Origin: Gammaproteobacteria bacterium
GTDB taxonomy: Bacteria; Pseudomonadota; Gammaproteobacteria; Eutrophobiales; Eutrophobiaceae
DNA: 64,000 bases
Direction of reading: 5' to 3'
Assembly: GCA_028279365.1 (NCBI GenBank)
Contig: JANQNX010000013.1
Location: forward strand, 186,001-250,000
The notes under the pieces are model-generated. The model saw only the letters and a program-made list of their open reading frames with translations, was not told the DNA's origin and did no database searches. This document shows positions 10,110 through 16,249 of the stretch, in pieces. Both the position numbers and the translations under genes were made by a program. Within the stretch, counting starts at the first letter, position 1. The number at the start of each line of letters is the position of its first letter.

Positions 10110-10784
10110 TTAATCGTCGCCAGAGAAAGCGGCAAGTAAATGCAGCAAATGTTGAAACAGGATGACGATATTTAAATATAGAGAAATCGTCGCCATGACG
10201 TAGTTTCTCTCTCCGCCGTGAATGATGCGACTGGTGTCATATAGAATGAAACCACTCATGATCAATACCATGATTGAACTGATAGCCAGCTGAATGGCCG
10301 GGATTTGCAGAAACAGGTTGAGCAGCATGGCGCCAAGGCCCACCATAAACCCGACAATCAGAAAACCGCCGAGAAATGAGAAATCCTTGCGGGTGGTCAG
10401 CACATAACCTGACAGTCCCAGAAATATGACACCGGTTCCGCCTAGTGCTGTTCCAATCAGCTGCGAACCGTTGGAATAAGCAGCCATGTAGTGATTCAGC
10501 ATAGGGCCTAATCCATATCCCAGTAGTCCGACAAAAACAAAGGTCAGGGGCAGGGCGGCGACAGAATTTCTGTATTTTGGTATTACAAACCAAACCAGGC
10601 CTATCGCAACAATATTACATACCAGCGCCGACATAAATGATGCGTTGGTCGCCACTGCGACAGCAGACATCAACGCGCTAAAAAACAGTGTGGCTGATAA
10701 CAATAAATATGTGTTTTTCAGTACTTTATTTGTTGCCAGCGCCGATTCATTCGTTTGGGCAACAGCGTAAGGAGTTTGACTCAT
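10110..10784 (-). CDS. BAX inhibitor-1/YccA family membrane protein
   Basis: A 224 aa polytopic inner-membrane protein of the BI-1/YccA (TMBIM) family. There are seven hydrophobic segments after a soluble N-terminus with the family-typical start (MSQTPYAVAQTNESALATNKVLKNTYLLL). YccA in E. coli modulates FtsH proteolysis, and BsYetJ conducts calcium, so an exact role is not fixed. Typical C-terminal features are the MSGFILYDTSRIIHGGE loop and the last helix SLYLNIVILFQHLLHLL. The ribosome-binding site is strong (AGAGGTGA before the ATG). It is flanked by its own terminator and stands alone. Confidence 0.93.
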   Translation of the reverse strand: MSQTPYAVAQTNESALATNKVLKNTYLLLSATLFFSALMSAVAVATNASFMSALVCNIVAIGLVWFVIPKYRNSVAALPLTFVFVGLLGYGLGPMLNHYMAAYSNGSQLIGTALGGTGVIFLGLSGYVLTTRKDFSFLGGFLIVGFMVGLGAMLLNLFLQIPAIQLAISSIMVLIMSGFILYDTSRIIHGGERNYVMATISLYLNIVILFQHLLHLLAAFSGDD

Positions 10785-10928
10785 CTAAATCACCTCTTTT
10801 TGAAATAATAACTACTATGTAATGCTTTGAGCGTAAGAATTCAAGTTTTGTTTCATGAATTTTTCATTAATTTCAACAAATAATCAGGCTTTTCCCTCTG
10901 GTCTTGATGATGTATTCTCTCGCTCCTT

Positions 10929-11063
10929 AGTTGTTTCGGAGAGGTGGCAGACAAATTCGTCGGGAACGAATTTGGACACTTGAGCGAAGCGAGAGTGGTG
11001 CGCAGCACCGAGGCACAGGATGTGCCGAGTCAATGGTTGAATGCAAAGCGACAGCGTCGCTTT
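10929..11063 (+). repeat. Broken tRNA-Ser copy carrying an array of perfect hairpins
   Basis: Bases 10929-10951 repeat 11091-11113 exactly (23 nt, covering the tRNA-Ser leader and acceptor/D arm). A second tRNA fragment, TGGTTGAATGCA at 11034-11045, matches the D loop of the intact gene. Between and after these lie successive palindromes: 9-bp stem 10952-10960/10966-10974 (5-nt loop); imperfect 10977-10997 with tandem G-A mismatches; 5-bp stem 10997-11001/11005-11009 (3-nt loop); 6-bp stem 11012-11017/11021-11026 (3-nt loop); and 8-bp stem 11045-11052/11056-11063 (3-nt loop). It cannot fold as a functional tRNA. It looks like a tRNA-derived pseudogene invaded by a palindromic element. Confidence 0.75.
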
Positions 11064-11099
11064 AAGTTGATGTTCCATTAGATAAAATGCAGTTGTTTC

Positions 11100-11190
11100 G
11101 GAGAGGTGGCAGAGTGGTTGAATGCACCGGTCTTGAAAACCGGCAAGGGTGAATAGCCCTTCGTGGGTTCAAATCCCACCCTCTCCGCCA
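11100..11190 (+). tRNA. tRNA-Ser (anticodon UGA)
   Basis: A 91-nt gene with encoded CCA. Acceptor arm GGAGAGG pairs with CCTCTCC, the long variable arm is typical of serine tRNAs (CAAGGGTGAATAGCCCTTC), and the T arm is GTGGGTTCAAATCCCAC. The anticodon loop CTTGAAA puts TGA at 11134-11136. A plausible -10 (TAAAAT, 11083-11088) lies just upstream, and a bidirectional terminator follows at 11231-11265. Its 3' end has served as an integration site: the last 14 bases recur at 12829-12842. Confidence 0.97.
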
Positions 11191-11230
11191 TTATTTTAAT
11201 ATATCTAATTGATATATAAATAAATGATAT

Positions 11231-11265
11231 AAAAAGCTTTCTAAGTGTGCGCTTTAGAGCTTTTT
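11231..11265. terminator. Bidirectional terminator between tRNA-Ser and the island gene
   Basis: The arms AAAAAGCT (11231-11238) and AGCTTTTT (11258-11265) enclose an inner imperfect stem (CTAAG with CTTTAG). This gives a U-rich end in both directions. It would terminate tRNA-Ser on the plus strand and the convergent HNH-like gene on the minus strand, whose stop codon is at 11270. Confidence 0.6.
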
Positions 11266-11269
11266 ATAA

Positions 11270-12079
11270 TTATATCTGTTGAATTTTTTTCAGGTCGAAA
11301 GAAACAATTGCTTCTTGGCCATATATAACGATAGATGTTTTTGTTGGTGCTTCTGGCCAGAAGGGATGAGGGATATTGCTAAAATCAATATTTACTTCAA
11401 CTTCTTGTTCTATTTCCAACTCTCGATACGTTGATAAACAACCTATCTTAAAGTTGTATTCATCTGGCTCATCTATAGTAACCATGAATGCAACCGGAAA
11501 AAATTTAAGAAACCACAAAGCTACTGGTTCGCGTATTGTTAGATCAGTGTAAGCACAATCTCTGGCCATAACGTGATGTTTATATGGGTAAGGCCAAAAA
11601 TATATATTCAATGATTCTGGTAAAGCTAAGCTAGAATCTTGCATGTAATCTTTTAAAGGCTCAGTGATTTTGCCTTTTAAATATCTATCTACACCTTGGG
11701 CAGCAATATGACCTAATAAAGATCTCATAATTTTTTGTGGCTTTGTTTTTATGGATAAAGGAGAAGGAATATAAAGCTCAGTTTTTAAATACATTCCTAT
11801 TTTATTTACAAAATTAATAAATTCCTGGTCGTATTTCCCTCCAAGCAATTCACTGTTACAACGACGACATAAAGTTCTATATTTAATTCCATTTTGTGAA
11901 TACCTTCCTTTTATAGAAGGCTTGCTTTTATTTAAATGTTCAAGAATATGATGTAGTTCTACTTGGGATACTTTGATACAGCCTTTTGGAGGAGTATGAT
12001 CTTCAGTTAAAGGGCCAGTTTCACCACAAATATTACAAATGCCATTTTTAGGCCCTCTAGTAGCAATAAGAATGGACAC
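11270..12079 (-). CDS. Protein of unknown function with N-terminal HNH-like zinc finger
   Basis: A 269 aa product. The GTG start at 12079 is supported by AAGGAG 9 nt upstream. Residues 13-85 form a treble-clef, HNH-like module. It has Cys15-x2-Cys18, then EDHTPPK (Asp27-His28, followed by Pro), and Cys71-x2-Cys74-Asn75 in a TLCRRCNSELLGG segment. This is the spacing of Cys4 HNH nucleases, with His28 and Asn75 in the places of the catalytic residues; the last His is not obvious. Residues about 90-269 match no family I recognise and end in beta-rich sequence. It is the second gene of the two-gene minus-strand cassette, 33 nt after the membrane protein gene. A nuclease or DNA-binding function is inferred, not shown. 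Confidence 0.7.
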   Translation of the reverse strand: MSILIATRGPKNGICNICGETGPLTEDHTPPKGCIKVSQVELHHILEHLNKSKPSIKGRYSQNGIKYRTLCRRCNSELLGGKYDQEFINFVNKIGMYLKTELYIPSPLSIKTKPQKIMRSLLGHIAAQGVDRYLKGKITEPLKDYMQDSSLALPESLNIYFWPYPYKHHVMARDCAYTDLTIREPVALWFLKFFPVAFMVTIDEPDEYNFKIGCLSTYRELEIEQEVEVNIDFSNIPHPFWPEAPTKTSIVIYGQEAIVSFDLKKIQQI

Positions 12080-12855: not shown

Positions 12856-15468
12856 TTATTTTTTTGTGTCTTTTGGAATTAGGAAAAAGAATTTACTGCC
12901 TTTGCCTGGTTCGGACTCGACCCAGATATTCCCATGGTAGCGTTCTACAATTCTTGCGCAGAGAGCGAGACCAATACCGGTACCTTCATATTCGTCCCTG
13001 TTATGTAGTCGTTTAAAGATCAGGAATACTTTCTCCTGATTTTCAGGGGCAATACCAATACCATTATCCGCTACCGAAAATAGCCAGCCCCTATCTTGTT
13101 CTTCACAGTCGATAATTATTTCCGGGGAAGCGTCTTTGGATTGATACTTTAACCCATTGCCGATTAAGTTCTGCATAAGGCACGAGAAATGCTCAGGCTT
13201 GATTTTTACTTCAGGTATATCAGTTTTAACAATAATATTTGCGTCTTTATACTTTTCAGACAACTTAAACTGTTTCAGCGTATCGTTCAGTTCTTTTGCC
13301 GTATCAATCGGTTCGGGGTGTTCTTCAACGTTGTTCAATCTTGAGTAATGCAACAAATCCAAGACCAATGCTTTCATTCTGTCAGCGGATAAAATGGCAA
13401 AGTCGATGTAATCCTTGGCTTCATCATCCAGTTTGTCGCTGTGTTCTTCCTGTAATAATTTCATGAAGCTGGAAATCATGCGGATTGGTTCTTGTAAGTC
13501 ATGCGAGGCAATATAAGCCATGCGTTCTAATTCTTTATTCGATCTTTCCAGTTCCTGTTGGGTTTGATGCAGTTCTGAAATATCGGTTGAGATATTGCAA
13601 AAGGCATAGATCTCATCATCAATATCGTATAGCGGAAACTCAACGGAAATAAGGTGATAGTCTTTGCTGTAAATTGTGAAGTCACGTTTCATCGTGACCG
13701 ATTGCTGAGTCTCTAATACCTGTCGCTGATGCTCTGCGATTAGTGTTGCCATTTCTTCGTTAAACACATCTTTATAATGTTCACCAATGACCTGGTCATT
13801 ATCGAAACAAAACTCATGCATGGCAGCTTCATTTATCTTGGCAATTTTGCCGTTTCTATCAAGGATATAAATATAGGCCCTTGAATTATTCAGGATAAAC
13901 TGCAAATCATAATCAGCCTGATTGATTGAATCCCGGTATTTTTTATTTAGCATTAATCGGGTAATGGATCTCGCTATACCAACGTCTGCTTCAGACCATT
14001 TTCTCGCGTAACCGCTTATGTTTTCTTGCCAGCGTTGAAATGAGGCGCGCGGGGTTAAATGGTAACCCACATCAGTTTTACGTACGCTCTTTTCAGGGCG
14101 CCCGGCCCATTCGACATCCTCCACTTTTTCCTGTCGAAACCAGATAAGATAATCCATCATTGCTGAACTGATCGGAATTGCCATCACGCCACCGGCTGCT
14201 GTTTGTTCATCCATCTCAAAACCGACATCTCGACCGATTGATTCCGTAACAAAGCAATCACCTTCGTGATTGTCTTCTATCCAGTTTATCAGCTTTGTTG
14301 CAAATGAAACCTCAGGCGTTAAACCAAATACGACAACCTTGCCATTCAAACTGATGATGACACCGTCTGCGTCAACCGCTTCTAACAGTAAATGCTGTTT
14401 ATGTTTTAATGTATCAATCAAATTTTGATCAGAGCTAAACGCGACATTCAATTCACGCAAGCCTGCGCGTTTTTGTTCGTTGGACATTTCTTCTCTTGAA
14501 CGTATCACATTGGATAAATACGCAGAGAACGTATGTGCCATTAGCTCTGCTGTCATGCGTAGAGGATAGGGTACGTAAAAAGGTTTATTATGATGACAGG
14601 CGATCAGTCCCCATAAGCGATTATTTTGTATCACCGATATCGACATGGAGGCCTTGACGCCCATGTTACGCAAATATTCCATGTGCACGGGTGAAACGCT
14701 GCGTAAGCACGAGTAACTTAAATCTATCGGCATGCCATCACTATGCTTATCATCCGGCAAGATAGGAACAGGGTTAAAATTTACATCCGGGATTAGTCGT
14801 AGATAGTTTCTTGCATATAATGCCCGCGCCTGTTTTGGAATGTCTGAGGCAGGGAAATGCAAGTTAATATAGGAAGACATGTACATCTCGCGCTTCTCTG
14901 CGACAACCTTGCCATTCCAGTTTTCATCAAACTTATATAGTTTCACTCTGGCAAAGCCAGTCAATTTCTGAATCTGATCAACGACGAAGTCAAACAAGAT
15001 TCCCTGTTCATGCACTCGTTGCAATTCAACAGAGAAATGCATGACTTGCTGGTAAAGATCGTTATTTATTTGAACGCTTCTGTCGTGTTCATGTCTTTCC
15101 AGCTCAAGGATGATGACGTCATCGGAATAATGCAGAACCGCATCAAAATTGTATTCAATGTTATTCAGATAGAATGATACTGTGGTGTAGCGGATTGGAT
15201 TCAATATGCCGCTGGAGATGATTTCTCTTAATTTGGAAAGTTTATCTTCAGTAATATAATCTACGAGGTTGTGTCCAATCGTATCAGTCAGGCTATTACC
15301 AACTAACTCAATAAAGTTTTCGCTGACTTTAACAATGTCAAAGTTATCATTTAACACCAGCAAGTAACCGTGCGGCTGAATCGAGCCGGGAATATGAATC
15401 GGTTCATTATCACAGCCATCAATGGCTTTTTTTAACTGTTTTTCATCAAGCGCCTTTTGTCCCTTCAT
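12856..15468 (-). CDS. bphP: Bacteriophytochrome sensor histidine kinase
   Basis: An 870 aa red/far-red photoreceptor kinase. Order: PAS (about 20-120) with the bilin-binding Cys19 in DGCDNEPIHIPG; GAF (about 140-310) with PASDIP and the SCLRSVSPVHMEYL chromophore pocket; PHY (about 325-505) with tongue motifs WAGRP and PRASFQRW; an extra PAS (about 525-640); DHp with phosphoacceptor His656 in ASHDLQEPIR; and the ATPase domain with DNGIGIAPENQ and GTGIGLALC. Cys in the N-terminal position indicates biliverdin as chromophore. bphO lies 36 nt upstream on the same strand. No response regulator is encoded next to it, so its partner is elsewhere. It starts just outside the tRNA-Ser island. Confidence 0.96.
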   Translation of the reverse strand: MKGQKALDEKQLKKAIDGCDNEPIHIPGSIQPHGYLLVLNDNFDIVKVSENFIELVGNSLTDTIGHNLVDYITEDKLSKLREIISSGILNPIRYTTVSFYLNNIEYNFDAVLHYSDDVIILELERHEHDRSVQINNDLYQQVMHFSVELQRVHEQGILFDFVVDQIQKLTGFARVKLYKFDENWNGKVVAEKREMYMSSYINLHFPASDIPKQARALYARNYLRLIPDVNFNPVPILPDDKHSDGMPIDLSYSCLRSVSPVHMEYLRNMGVKASMSISVIQNNRLWGLIACHHNKPFYVPYPLRMTAELMAHTFSAYLSNVIRSREEMSNEQKRAGLRELNVAFSSDQNLIDTLKHKQHLLLEAVDADGVIISLNGKVVVFGLTPEVSFATKLINWIEDNHEGDCFVTESIGRDVGFEMDEQTAAGGVMAIPISSAMMDYLIWFRQEKVEDVEWAGRPEKSVRKTDVGYHLTPRASFQRWQENISGYARKWSEADVGIARSITRLMLNKKYRDSINQADYDLQFILNNSRAYIYILDRNGKIAKINEAAMHEFCFDNDQVIGEHYKDVFNEEMATLIAEHQRQVLETQQSVTMKRDFTIYSKDYHLISVEFPLYDIDDEIYAFCNISTDISELHQTQQELERSNKELERMAYIASHDLQEPIRMISSFMKLLQEEHSDKLDDEAKDYIDFAILSADRMKALVLDLLHYSRLNNVEEHPEPIDTAKELNDTLKQFKLSEKYKDANIIVKTDIPEVKIKPEHFSCLMQNLIGNGLKYQSKDASPEIIIDCEEQDRGWLFSVADNGIGIAPENQEKVFLIFKRLHNRDEYEGTGIGLALCARIVERYHGNIWVESEPGKGSKFFFLIPKDTKK

Positions 15469-15504
15469 TGCGAATCCCTTTGATTTGTTTTATTCAGCAT
15501 TACT

Positions 15505-16110
15505 TTACTTGGTAGTATGTTTATAGATTTGCCAAAGCCAGTTTTCAAGACTGGTAAAGCTTGCAAGCGCTGCTTTTGTGCATTGTTCACTATCAGAAGC
15601 GTGCTGCTCTAACATGATCAAAAAATGTTTCCAGTCGAAACTAGTCTGTTCAGCCTTGCCATTCAAAAATGATGCACCGTGCGAGGCGGTAAAGCCGAGT
15701 GTTTGATACACATTTTTTGCCATCACCTGTCCACCTAGCGAAGCGCCTTCAACGACGTACATCAGCCCAAGAAAATCATCCTCGCTGTTATCGAGACAGA
15801 GTTCAGGTCGTATAGGGATACGACTAGTGATGTTCAGGCTGTTTAAATCGTTCTTCAATAACAGGCTTCTCGACACCGGAGAATATAAGCTGGGCAATGA
15901 CGCGATTTGATTTTCGACGACTTCATGAAAGCATTCAAACGCCTGTAAAAATAATTGATAGTGTTTTAGTTGTAATGATGGCTTGGTTAAGTGTGTGGTG
16001 ATGGGGTGTTGATGTAGGCGTTGATGGATAGTTGCTGTTGCCTCACGCAACGCTCGAATCACGCTTTCGTCTTGTTGCTTATTCGTTATTGTTTCTGCGT
16101 TAAGAGGCAT
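15505..16110 (-). CDS. bphO: Biliverdin-producing heme oxygenase
   Basis: Opens heme to biliverdin, the chromophore of the phytochrome encoded immediately downstream. From the ATG at 16110 the product is 201 aa, the usual size. The GTG at 16179 would add 23 poorly conserved residues and is less likely. The proximal heme ligand is His29 in the conserved context LREATATIHQRLH. The distal helix carries the glycine-rich GLMYVVEGASLGGQ, which bends over the heme. Gene order bphO-bphP with a 36 nt gap indicates one operon that makes holophytochrome. Confidence 0.93.
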   Translation of the reverse strand: MPLNAETITNKQQDESVIRALREATATIHQRLHQHPITTHLTKPSLQLKHYQLFLQAFECFHEVVENQIASLPSLYSPVSRSLLLKNDLNSLNITSRIPIRPELCLDNSEDDFLGLMYVVEGASLGGQVMAKNVYQTLGFTASHGASFLNGKAEQTSFDWKHFLIMLEQHASDSEQCTKAALASFTSLENWLWQIYKHTTK

Positions 16111-16249
16111 GGTTCTGTTCCCATCAGCGCGCTTATTATTATTTGTGTATTCACGCCATTTCCTTATGAATCGAATCACATTTATTTTTTGATAATTATT
16201 GCTCTATTACGCTGATTTACCAATACCTAAACGCAAAAATCTCAGAAAT

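What the first reader, a model, noticed from the sequence alone, without database searches (positions are those of the whole stretch)
10929..11063. Hairpin array inside a broken tRNA-Ser copy
Seen: a 23-nt copy of the tRNA leader/5' arm, then about 80 nt of back-to-back palindromes, then a 12-nt D-loop fragment, then another 8-bp palindrome, all just before the intact tRNA. Four of the stems are perfect with loops of 3-5 nt. This density is far beyond chance. It resembles a palindromic selfish or REP-like element, or a recombination-site array, inserted in a duplicated tRNA.
Basis: seen in the sequence. Interest (0 to 1): 0.55.

Follow-up and report, generated by a model that had tools for sequence, protein, structure and literature searches.

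The report
Mobile hairpin module beside tRNA genes
The odd run of hairpins next to this serine tRNA gene is one copy of a small, repeated, structure-conserved DNA/RNA module that occurs beside tRNA genes and inside ERIC repeats in many gammaproteobacteria, appears related to the long-known E. coli RtT repeats, and shows loop motifs like the binding sites of the regulator protein CsrA.

Summary
Window 10952-11033 is an ~82-bp four-hairpin module sitting between tRNA positions 14 and 16 of a truncated 5' copy of tRNA-Ser(TGA). By sequence it is single-copy in this genome, but a covariance model built from relatives finds 12 copies. Ten of the 12 lie within 250 bp of a tRNA gene, where 0.7% of the genome lies. 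The model also hits 34 of 53 genomes of the order and 146 of 370 sampled genomes of the class. In helices H1 and H4, 15 of 16 pairs show two-sided compensatory changes. GGA dominates the last loop without being required: 81 of 95. In E. coli ERIC elements the module is a clean 71-bp presence/absence difference at GTGA^ATCC. The E. coli tyrT "RtT" repeats share its architecture and junctions. Best reading: a non-autonomous, RtT-related hairpin element found after "GA", often in D- and T-loops of partial tRNA copies. Its RNA resembles CsrA/RsmA-binding hairpins; transcription and CsrA binding are inferred, not shown. The mobilising enzyme is unknown.

The parts
10929..10951 (+). Exact copy of the tRNA-Ser leader (9 nt) and tRNA positions 1-14; ends ...GGCAGA, the insertion point
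   Evidence: Direct repeat with 11091-11113; tRNA 1-14 at -161..-148
10952..11033 (+). Hairpin module, CAAATTCG...GAGTCAA
   Evidence: R1 match 59.1 bits, E 1.6e-9 in the own genome
10952..10974 (+). Hairpin H1, 9-bp stem, loop CGGGA; GGA at 10963-10965
   Evidence: two-sided changes in relatives
10977..10997 (+). Hairpin H2, CACTT-GA-GC-GAA-GC-GA-GAGTG with a tandem G.A step
   Evidence: Read from the sequence; DNA and RNA folding programs do not pair it in this way
10997..11009 (+). Hairpin H3, GGTGC-GCA-GCACC
   Evidence: Folds
11012..11026 (+). Hairpin H4, GGCACA-GGA-TGTGCC; holds the heptamer CAGGATG, GGA at 11018-11020
   Evidence: loop GGA in 81 of 95 relatives without being required
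11034..11045 (+). Continuation of the broken tRNA copy, tRNA positions 16-27
   Evidence: Direct repeat with 11115-11126
11045..11063 (+). Hairpin that caps the truncated tRNA copy
   Evidence: Perfect 8-bp stem, loop 3
11091..11190 (+). Second leader copy and intact tRNA-Ser(TGA), tRNA at 11100-11190
   Evidence: ARAGORN, Rfam RF00005 63.7 bits

Best explanation
The block is one copy of a non-autonomous insertion module of roughly 70-85 bp made of four hairpins, related to the RtT repeats of E. coli tRNA operons. Shown: (1) it is a multi-copy, structure-conserved family that changes stem sequences while keeping loops; (2) in E. coli it occurs as a discrete presence/absence insert at ERIC GTGA^ATCC, without target duplication; (3) in this genome and its class it lies far more often than chance beside tRNA genes, in the T-loop (TTCGA^ATCC) of 3' tRNA copies or the D-loop (GGTTGA^, GGCAGA^) of 5' tRNA copies. 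Inferred: (4) copies persist only in partial tRNA duplicates because an insert in the working tRNA would destroy it; (5) when transcribed, alone or in a tRNA precursor as reported for RtT, the RNA displays two GGA-loop hairpins about 40-52 nt apart that resemble a dual CsrA/RsmA site, and tRNA processing would release it. How it moves is not known.
For: 12 own-genome copies at E<=0.01, 10 of 12 within 250 bp of a tRNA gene against 0.72% of the genome; 34 of 53 order genomes, 146 of 370 class genomes. Covariation: 98.2% of cells paired against 74.1% shuffled and 31-42% slid, 15 of 16 pairs with two-sided changes. GGA in the H4 loop in 81 of 95, controls 20 of 387 and 8 of 149. Filled and empty ERIC sites. 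tRNA adjacency in 13 of 30 order loci and 16 of 40 class loci. RtT: all 3 RtT hits of the order fall on R1 hits. CsrA motif as described in PMC7652899 (passages): CA(N)GGA in 75 of 81, H1-H4 spacing 63 nt or less in 79 of 81. Sub-threshold RsmY match at L214 570-652, E 0.0022.
Against: No transcript or binding data. E. coli RtT lacks GGA loops. No bias of module strand relative to flanking genes: ++ 13, -- 9, +- 12, -+ 9 (crude ORF calls). Module presence does not follow csrA presence: six small genomes have csrA and no module, four without a csrA hit (G026, G027, G042, G044) have modules. H1 has C, not A, two bases before GGA, and 9-bp stems; the review reports that most SELEX hairpins had four or fewer pairs. 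Terminator-like hairpins stand between several tRNAs and their 3' module (read). Whether the E. coli difference is gain or loss was not tested. The window copy has no RtT match at E<=1.
Confidence: 0.55

Rival explanations
1. DNA-level element only: the hairpins are single-strand recognition structures for a transposase (IS200/IS605- or RAYT-like, inserting 3' of a short target without duplication). The GGA loops are protein contacts in DNA and there is no RNA role.
For: Insertion after GA without target duplication, dispersal in both strands and many contexts, no gene-orientation bias.
Against: No Y1_Tnp match in the own genome, nor in G012, G013, G015 or G016, which carry 4 to 35 modules. 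Loop sequence matches a described RNA-binding motif. RtT, the closest relative, is reported as a transcript (PMC4986893, passages).
Confidence: 0.28
2. RtT-type tRNA-operon RNA: a structured spacer or small RNA released from tRNA precursors that acts in amino-acid starvation or tRNA processing, not through CsrA. The GGA loops are incidental.
For: Shared architecture and junctions with E. coli RtT; near-constant gap of 72-123 bp, mostly 72-103, in 16 class loci; RtT linked to tRNA transcripts and stringent response in PMC4986893 (passages).
Against: Many copies are not beside a tRNA gene: 24 of 40 class loci and 17 of 30 order loci were not within 250 bp; ERIC-borne copies.
Confidence: 0.2
3. 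A recombination-site array: remnants of attachment sites left by integrative elements at tRNA genes, with hairpins as integrase sites.
For: tRNA 3' copies resemble att remnants; a 23-nt direct repeat flanks 139 bp in the window.
Against: The same module occurs inside ERIC and away from tRNA genes; near-constant tRNA-to-module gap; no search for an integrase was made.
Confidence: 0.05
4. Chance or decay: a tRNA pseudogene with random hairpins.
For: The broken tRNA copy itself.
Against: Fold z-scores, family size and covariation.
Confidence: 0.01

Closest known systems
RtT RNA (Rfam RF00391; E. coli tyrT rttR repeats)
   Same: In tRNA 3' copies: GGTTCGA[hairpins, CCCGAAGGG...GAGTA]ATCC...CCA, tandem units; RtT hits coincide with R1 hits; a tandem-GA motif is reported for RtT (PMC7657543, passage) and is seen by eye in window H2
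   Different: E. coli RtT has no GGA loops and scores only 12-14 bits with R1; the window copy sits on the 5' side in a D-loop and has no RtT match; the module also occurs outside tRNA contexts
ERIC elements with an internal insert (enterobacteria)
   Same: The insert in E. coli, Pectobacterium, Klebsiella, Citrobacter and Xenorhabdus ERICs is this module
   Different: ERIC itself is the carrier, not the module; the window has no ERIC sequence (read)
YPAL / RU-2 of Yersinia (PMC2759123, PMC2229807, passages)
   Same: Intergenic miniature element with GGA-loop hairpins; Rheinheimera loci carry the module next to a tail like that of YPAL (by eye); targets near dyad symmetries
   Different: About 168 bp, target duplications of 3-26 bp as reported in the review; not aligned formally here
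REP elements (GTAG and CGTC families, PMC3733652, passages)
   Same: Short, high-copy, palindromic, intergenic
   Different: Those are single 20-40-bp tagged hairpins; this is a four-hairpin unit of about 80 bp without such a tag
CsrA/RsmA-binding sRNAs (CsrB, RsmY)
   Same: GGA in hairpin loops, CAGGATG heptamer; sub-threshold RsmY match at a 5' copy of the own genome (28.0 bits against a cut-off of 57)
   Different: Two sites per module, dispersed mobile copies, no demonstrated binding or transcription

Membership tests
RtT RNA (RF00391) | Match to the Rfam model at or above the gathering score | tested here: not met
   No RtT match in 10400-11700 at E<=1; none in 10 own-genome tRNA stretches; 0 of 53 order genomes above cut-off
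RtT RNA (RF00391) | Lies after a tRNA gene and carries a copy of its 3' end | tested here: not met
   Window copy is on the 5' side; met by seven other own-genome tRNA loci with 3' copies
RtT RNA (RF00391) | Transcribed and released by tRNA processing | not testable with these tools
   No expression data
CsrA/RsmA-binding RNA | GGA in hairpin loops, repeated | tested here: met
   GGA at 10963-10965 and 11018-11020, both in loops; 81 of 95 in relatives
CsrA/RsmA-binding RNA | Binds CsrA and is transcribed | not testable with these tools
   No binding or expression data
REP element | Single hairpin with unpaired GTAG or CGTC tag at one end | tested here: not met
   No such tag in the consensus columns
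REP element | RAYT (Y1) transposase in the genome | tested here: not met
   0 PF01797 matches in G000; the family definition does not demand it for CGTC REPs
ERIC | ERIC core and terminal inverted repeats | tested here: not met
   Not in the sequence (by reading)
IS200/IS605-type MITE | Insertion 3' of a fixed short target without duplication | tested here: inconclusive
   One clean filled/empty pair at GTGA^ATCC; G at -2 in 81 of 102 distinct upstreams, A at -1 fixed by the search pattern
Integron attC or phage att site | attC boxes or a cognate integrase | not tested
   No search was made

The most novel reading that the evidence does not exclude
A class-wide mobile module of dual CsrA/RsmA-type hairpins has colonised tRNA operons and MITEs such as ERIC. 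tRNA transcription would thereby release CsrA-titrating RNA and couple growth rate to the Csr network; the E. coli RtT repeats would be GGA-less descendants of it.
Probability: 0.28. Interest if true: 0.85.

Novelty: new variant of a known kind. Interest (0 to 1): 0.62.

Why it matters
It ties together three things usually described apart: the E. coli tyrT RtT repeats, the insert inside ERIC elements, and hairpin arrays in tRNA fragments. It gives a covariance model that finds the module in 146 of 370 sampled genomes of the class and outside the class in the phylum (32 of the 60 positives among 299 sampled). It makes two questions directly testable: what moves such elements, and whether a dispersed repeat feeds CsrA sites into tRNA-linked transcripts.

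Tried and rejected
Single-copy reading from BLAST-type searches: overturned by the covariance model, because stems diverge while structure and loops persist. csrA proximity as evidence for CsrA: model hits lie in 11 of 40 csrA stretches at E<=0.1, but csrA is followed by tRNA-Ser(gct) in most of them, which explains it. csrA presence as a predictor and Y1 transposase as the driver: no clear relation. Gene-orientation bias: none; the ORF caller was crude. Promoter and terminator scan of the window: nothing above chance. Viral-contig scan for the exact hairpins: 0. Phage and plasmid blastn: in the listed rows the matches start at query 154 or later, i.e. they lie in the tRNA. Paper searches listed no paper that, from title, abstract start or the passages read, describes this module; the key ERIC/YPAL papers are not held, so an earlier description of the ERIC insert is likely (recalled).

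The A2 rows were chosen for perfect stems; H1 was required to have a GGA loop, H4 was not. Shuffles were mononucleotide in 200-nt blocks, mononucleotide within each window. In one search at most 13 candidates per genome were scored, so counts are lower bounds. From one search's 60 dereplicated rows 38 went into A2 unchanged, one (L089) was shortened and the window was added; the others were dropped as partial, long or variant rows. Own-genome copies are not independent: three lie at one tRNA-Gln.

Full report
Window 10929-10951 repeats exactly the 9-nt leader and first 14 nt of tRNA-Ser(TGA) (11100-11190), and 11034-11045 repeats tRNA positions 16-27. Between them sits an 82-bp stretch of four hairpins (10952-11033), and a fifth hairpin (11045-11063) caps the truncated fragment. 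Folding is stronger than for shuffles (z -3.05 for 10929-11063; -4.28 for the module as DNA). No other 150-nt stretch of the window has as many bases in perfect hairpins.

A DNA search made it look single-copy in its genome, but a search of the 53 genomes of its order found pieces in 18, several of them multi-copy. They are mostly gammaproteobacteria by title: Pectobacterium, Klebsiella, Citrobacter, Xenorhabdus, Rheinheimera, Methylobacter, Rhodanobacter, Halomonas and others, plus one MAG labelled Burkholderiales.

These loci share one architecture: GA, then H1 (CAAATTCGYCNGGARCGAATTTG and variants), H2 (often CAGCC-nnn-GGCTG), H3 (CCC-nnn-GGG), H4 (stem-CA-N-GGA-TG-stem) and an end such as GAGTA(A). 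The H4 stem and loop were not part of the search. In 120 rows a perfect stem of 5 bp or more was found in 95, against 387 of 2400 shuffled windows and 149 of 591 genomic control windows. Its loop held GGA in 81 of 95, against 20 of 387 and 8 of 149, and TCC in one.

A covariance model (R1, 40 rows) gave 12 copies in the own genome at E<=0.01, copies in 34 of 53 genomes of the order, up to 45 per genome, in 146 of 370 class genomes at E<=1e-4, and in 60 of 299 phylum genomes, 32 of them outside the class. On 66 hits of a further set (64 distinct rows, one also in training) 98.2% of cells are paired, against 74.1% after shuffling and 31-42% when partners are slid; 15 of 16 pairs show two-sided changes. 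The GGA columns are nearly invariant while many stem columns vary; part of this comes from using the model to find the hits.

tRNA association. Ten of the 12 own-genome copies lie within 250 bp of a tRNA gene, where 0.72% of the genome lies; they belong to eight tRNA genes. Of 39 tRNA genes read, 11 have a second, partial copy of themselves within 700 bp, and nine of these 11 have a model hit at E<=1 beside it, two of them weak. 3' copies begin near tRNA position 58 at +218 to +252 from the tRNA start, with the module between GGTTCGA and ATCC...CCA; 5' copies end in the D-loop or just after it. Elsewhere 13 of 30 order loci and 16 of 40 class loci are within 250 bp of a tRNA gene.

Insertion. 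At E. coli panC-rpnC there are three states: no ERIC, ERIC alone, and ERIC with 71 bp inserted at GTGA^ATCC without duplication. The module query matches 603 of 5426 E. coli genomes. The T-loop of tRNA genes offers the same GA^ATCC. The direction of change (gain or loss) was not tested.

Closest known. E. coli K-12 tyrT carries three tandem units with GGTTCGA[...CCCGAAGGG...GAGTA]ATCCTTCCCCCACCACCA (one reads GGTTCGG), part of which is annotated rttR. R1 sees them only weakly (12-14 bits, E 0.04-0.11). Rfam RtT matches a Pectobacterium locus above its cut-off and three class loci below it. All three RtT hits in the order fall on R1 hits with the same 15-nt offset. RtT RNAs are reported as released from tRNA transcripts, with Northern signals in Actinobacillus (PMC4986893, passages), and rtT shows copy-number variation in Salmonella (PMC2658671, passage). 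The window copy itself has no RtT match at E<=1, so it is a relative in architecture, not a filed member.

Function. The loops match what is reported for CsrA sites: CAGGA(U/A/C)G in CsrB, RUACARGGAUGU from SELEX, and dimer bridging over 10-63 nt (PMC7652899, passages). In the family CA(N)GGA is found in 75 of 81 GGA loops of H4, and the H1-H4 spacing is 63 nt or less in 79 of 81; in the window it is 52 nt (positions). A sub-threshold RsmY match falls on a 5' copy of the own genome. Against this: GGA is absent in the E. coli RtT hairpin loops, there is no orientation bias, no relation to csrA presence, and terminator-like hairpins stand before several 3' copies. CsrA binding therefore remains an inference.

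Mobility. No Y1 transposase was found in the own genome or in some copy-rich relatives such as G016. The mobilising enzyme is unknown.

Noticed in passing
L224 (own genome C8:59800-62900), downstream of tRNA-Ser(gct): A first 3' unit is followed by a second terminator-like hairpin and the start of another GGTTCGACAAATCGG unit: a tandem array as at E. coli tyrT.
   Followed up: partly
L219 (own genome C14:32800-34300), upstream of tRNA-Met(cat): Two tandem 5' partial copies of the tRNA (tRNA 1-23 and a more diverged one) with a hairpin-capped end but only a weak model hit: fragment duplication may not need the module.
   Followed up: partly
csrA-tRNA-Ser(gct)-tRNA-Arg(acg) loci, L236-L275: In 11 of 40 csrA stretches a module lies near csrA, through the conserved neighbouring tRNA-Ser(gct).
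   Followed up: partly
E. coli panC-rpnC (L151-L154) and the ybfA region (L155): ERIC and its internal module vary between E. coli strains, including absence of the whole ERIC.
   Followed up: partly
phylum sample, family f187: Many genomes of one family outside the class also carry model hits, mostly at weaker scores; their context was not read.
   Followed up: no
window 11270-12079, - strand: ORF whose N-terminus has CxxC and a DHTPPKGC stretch like an HNH-type protein (by eye).
   Followed up: no
window 12856-16179, - strand: A long histidine-kinase-like ORF next to a short ORF; looks like a bacteriophytochrome and heme oxygenase pair (by eye, not searched).
   Followed up: no
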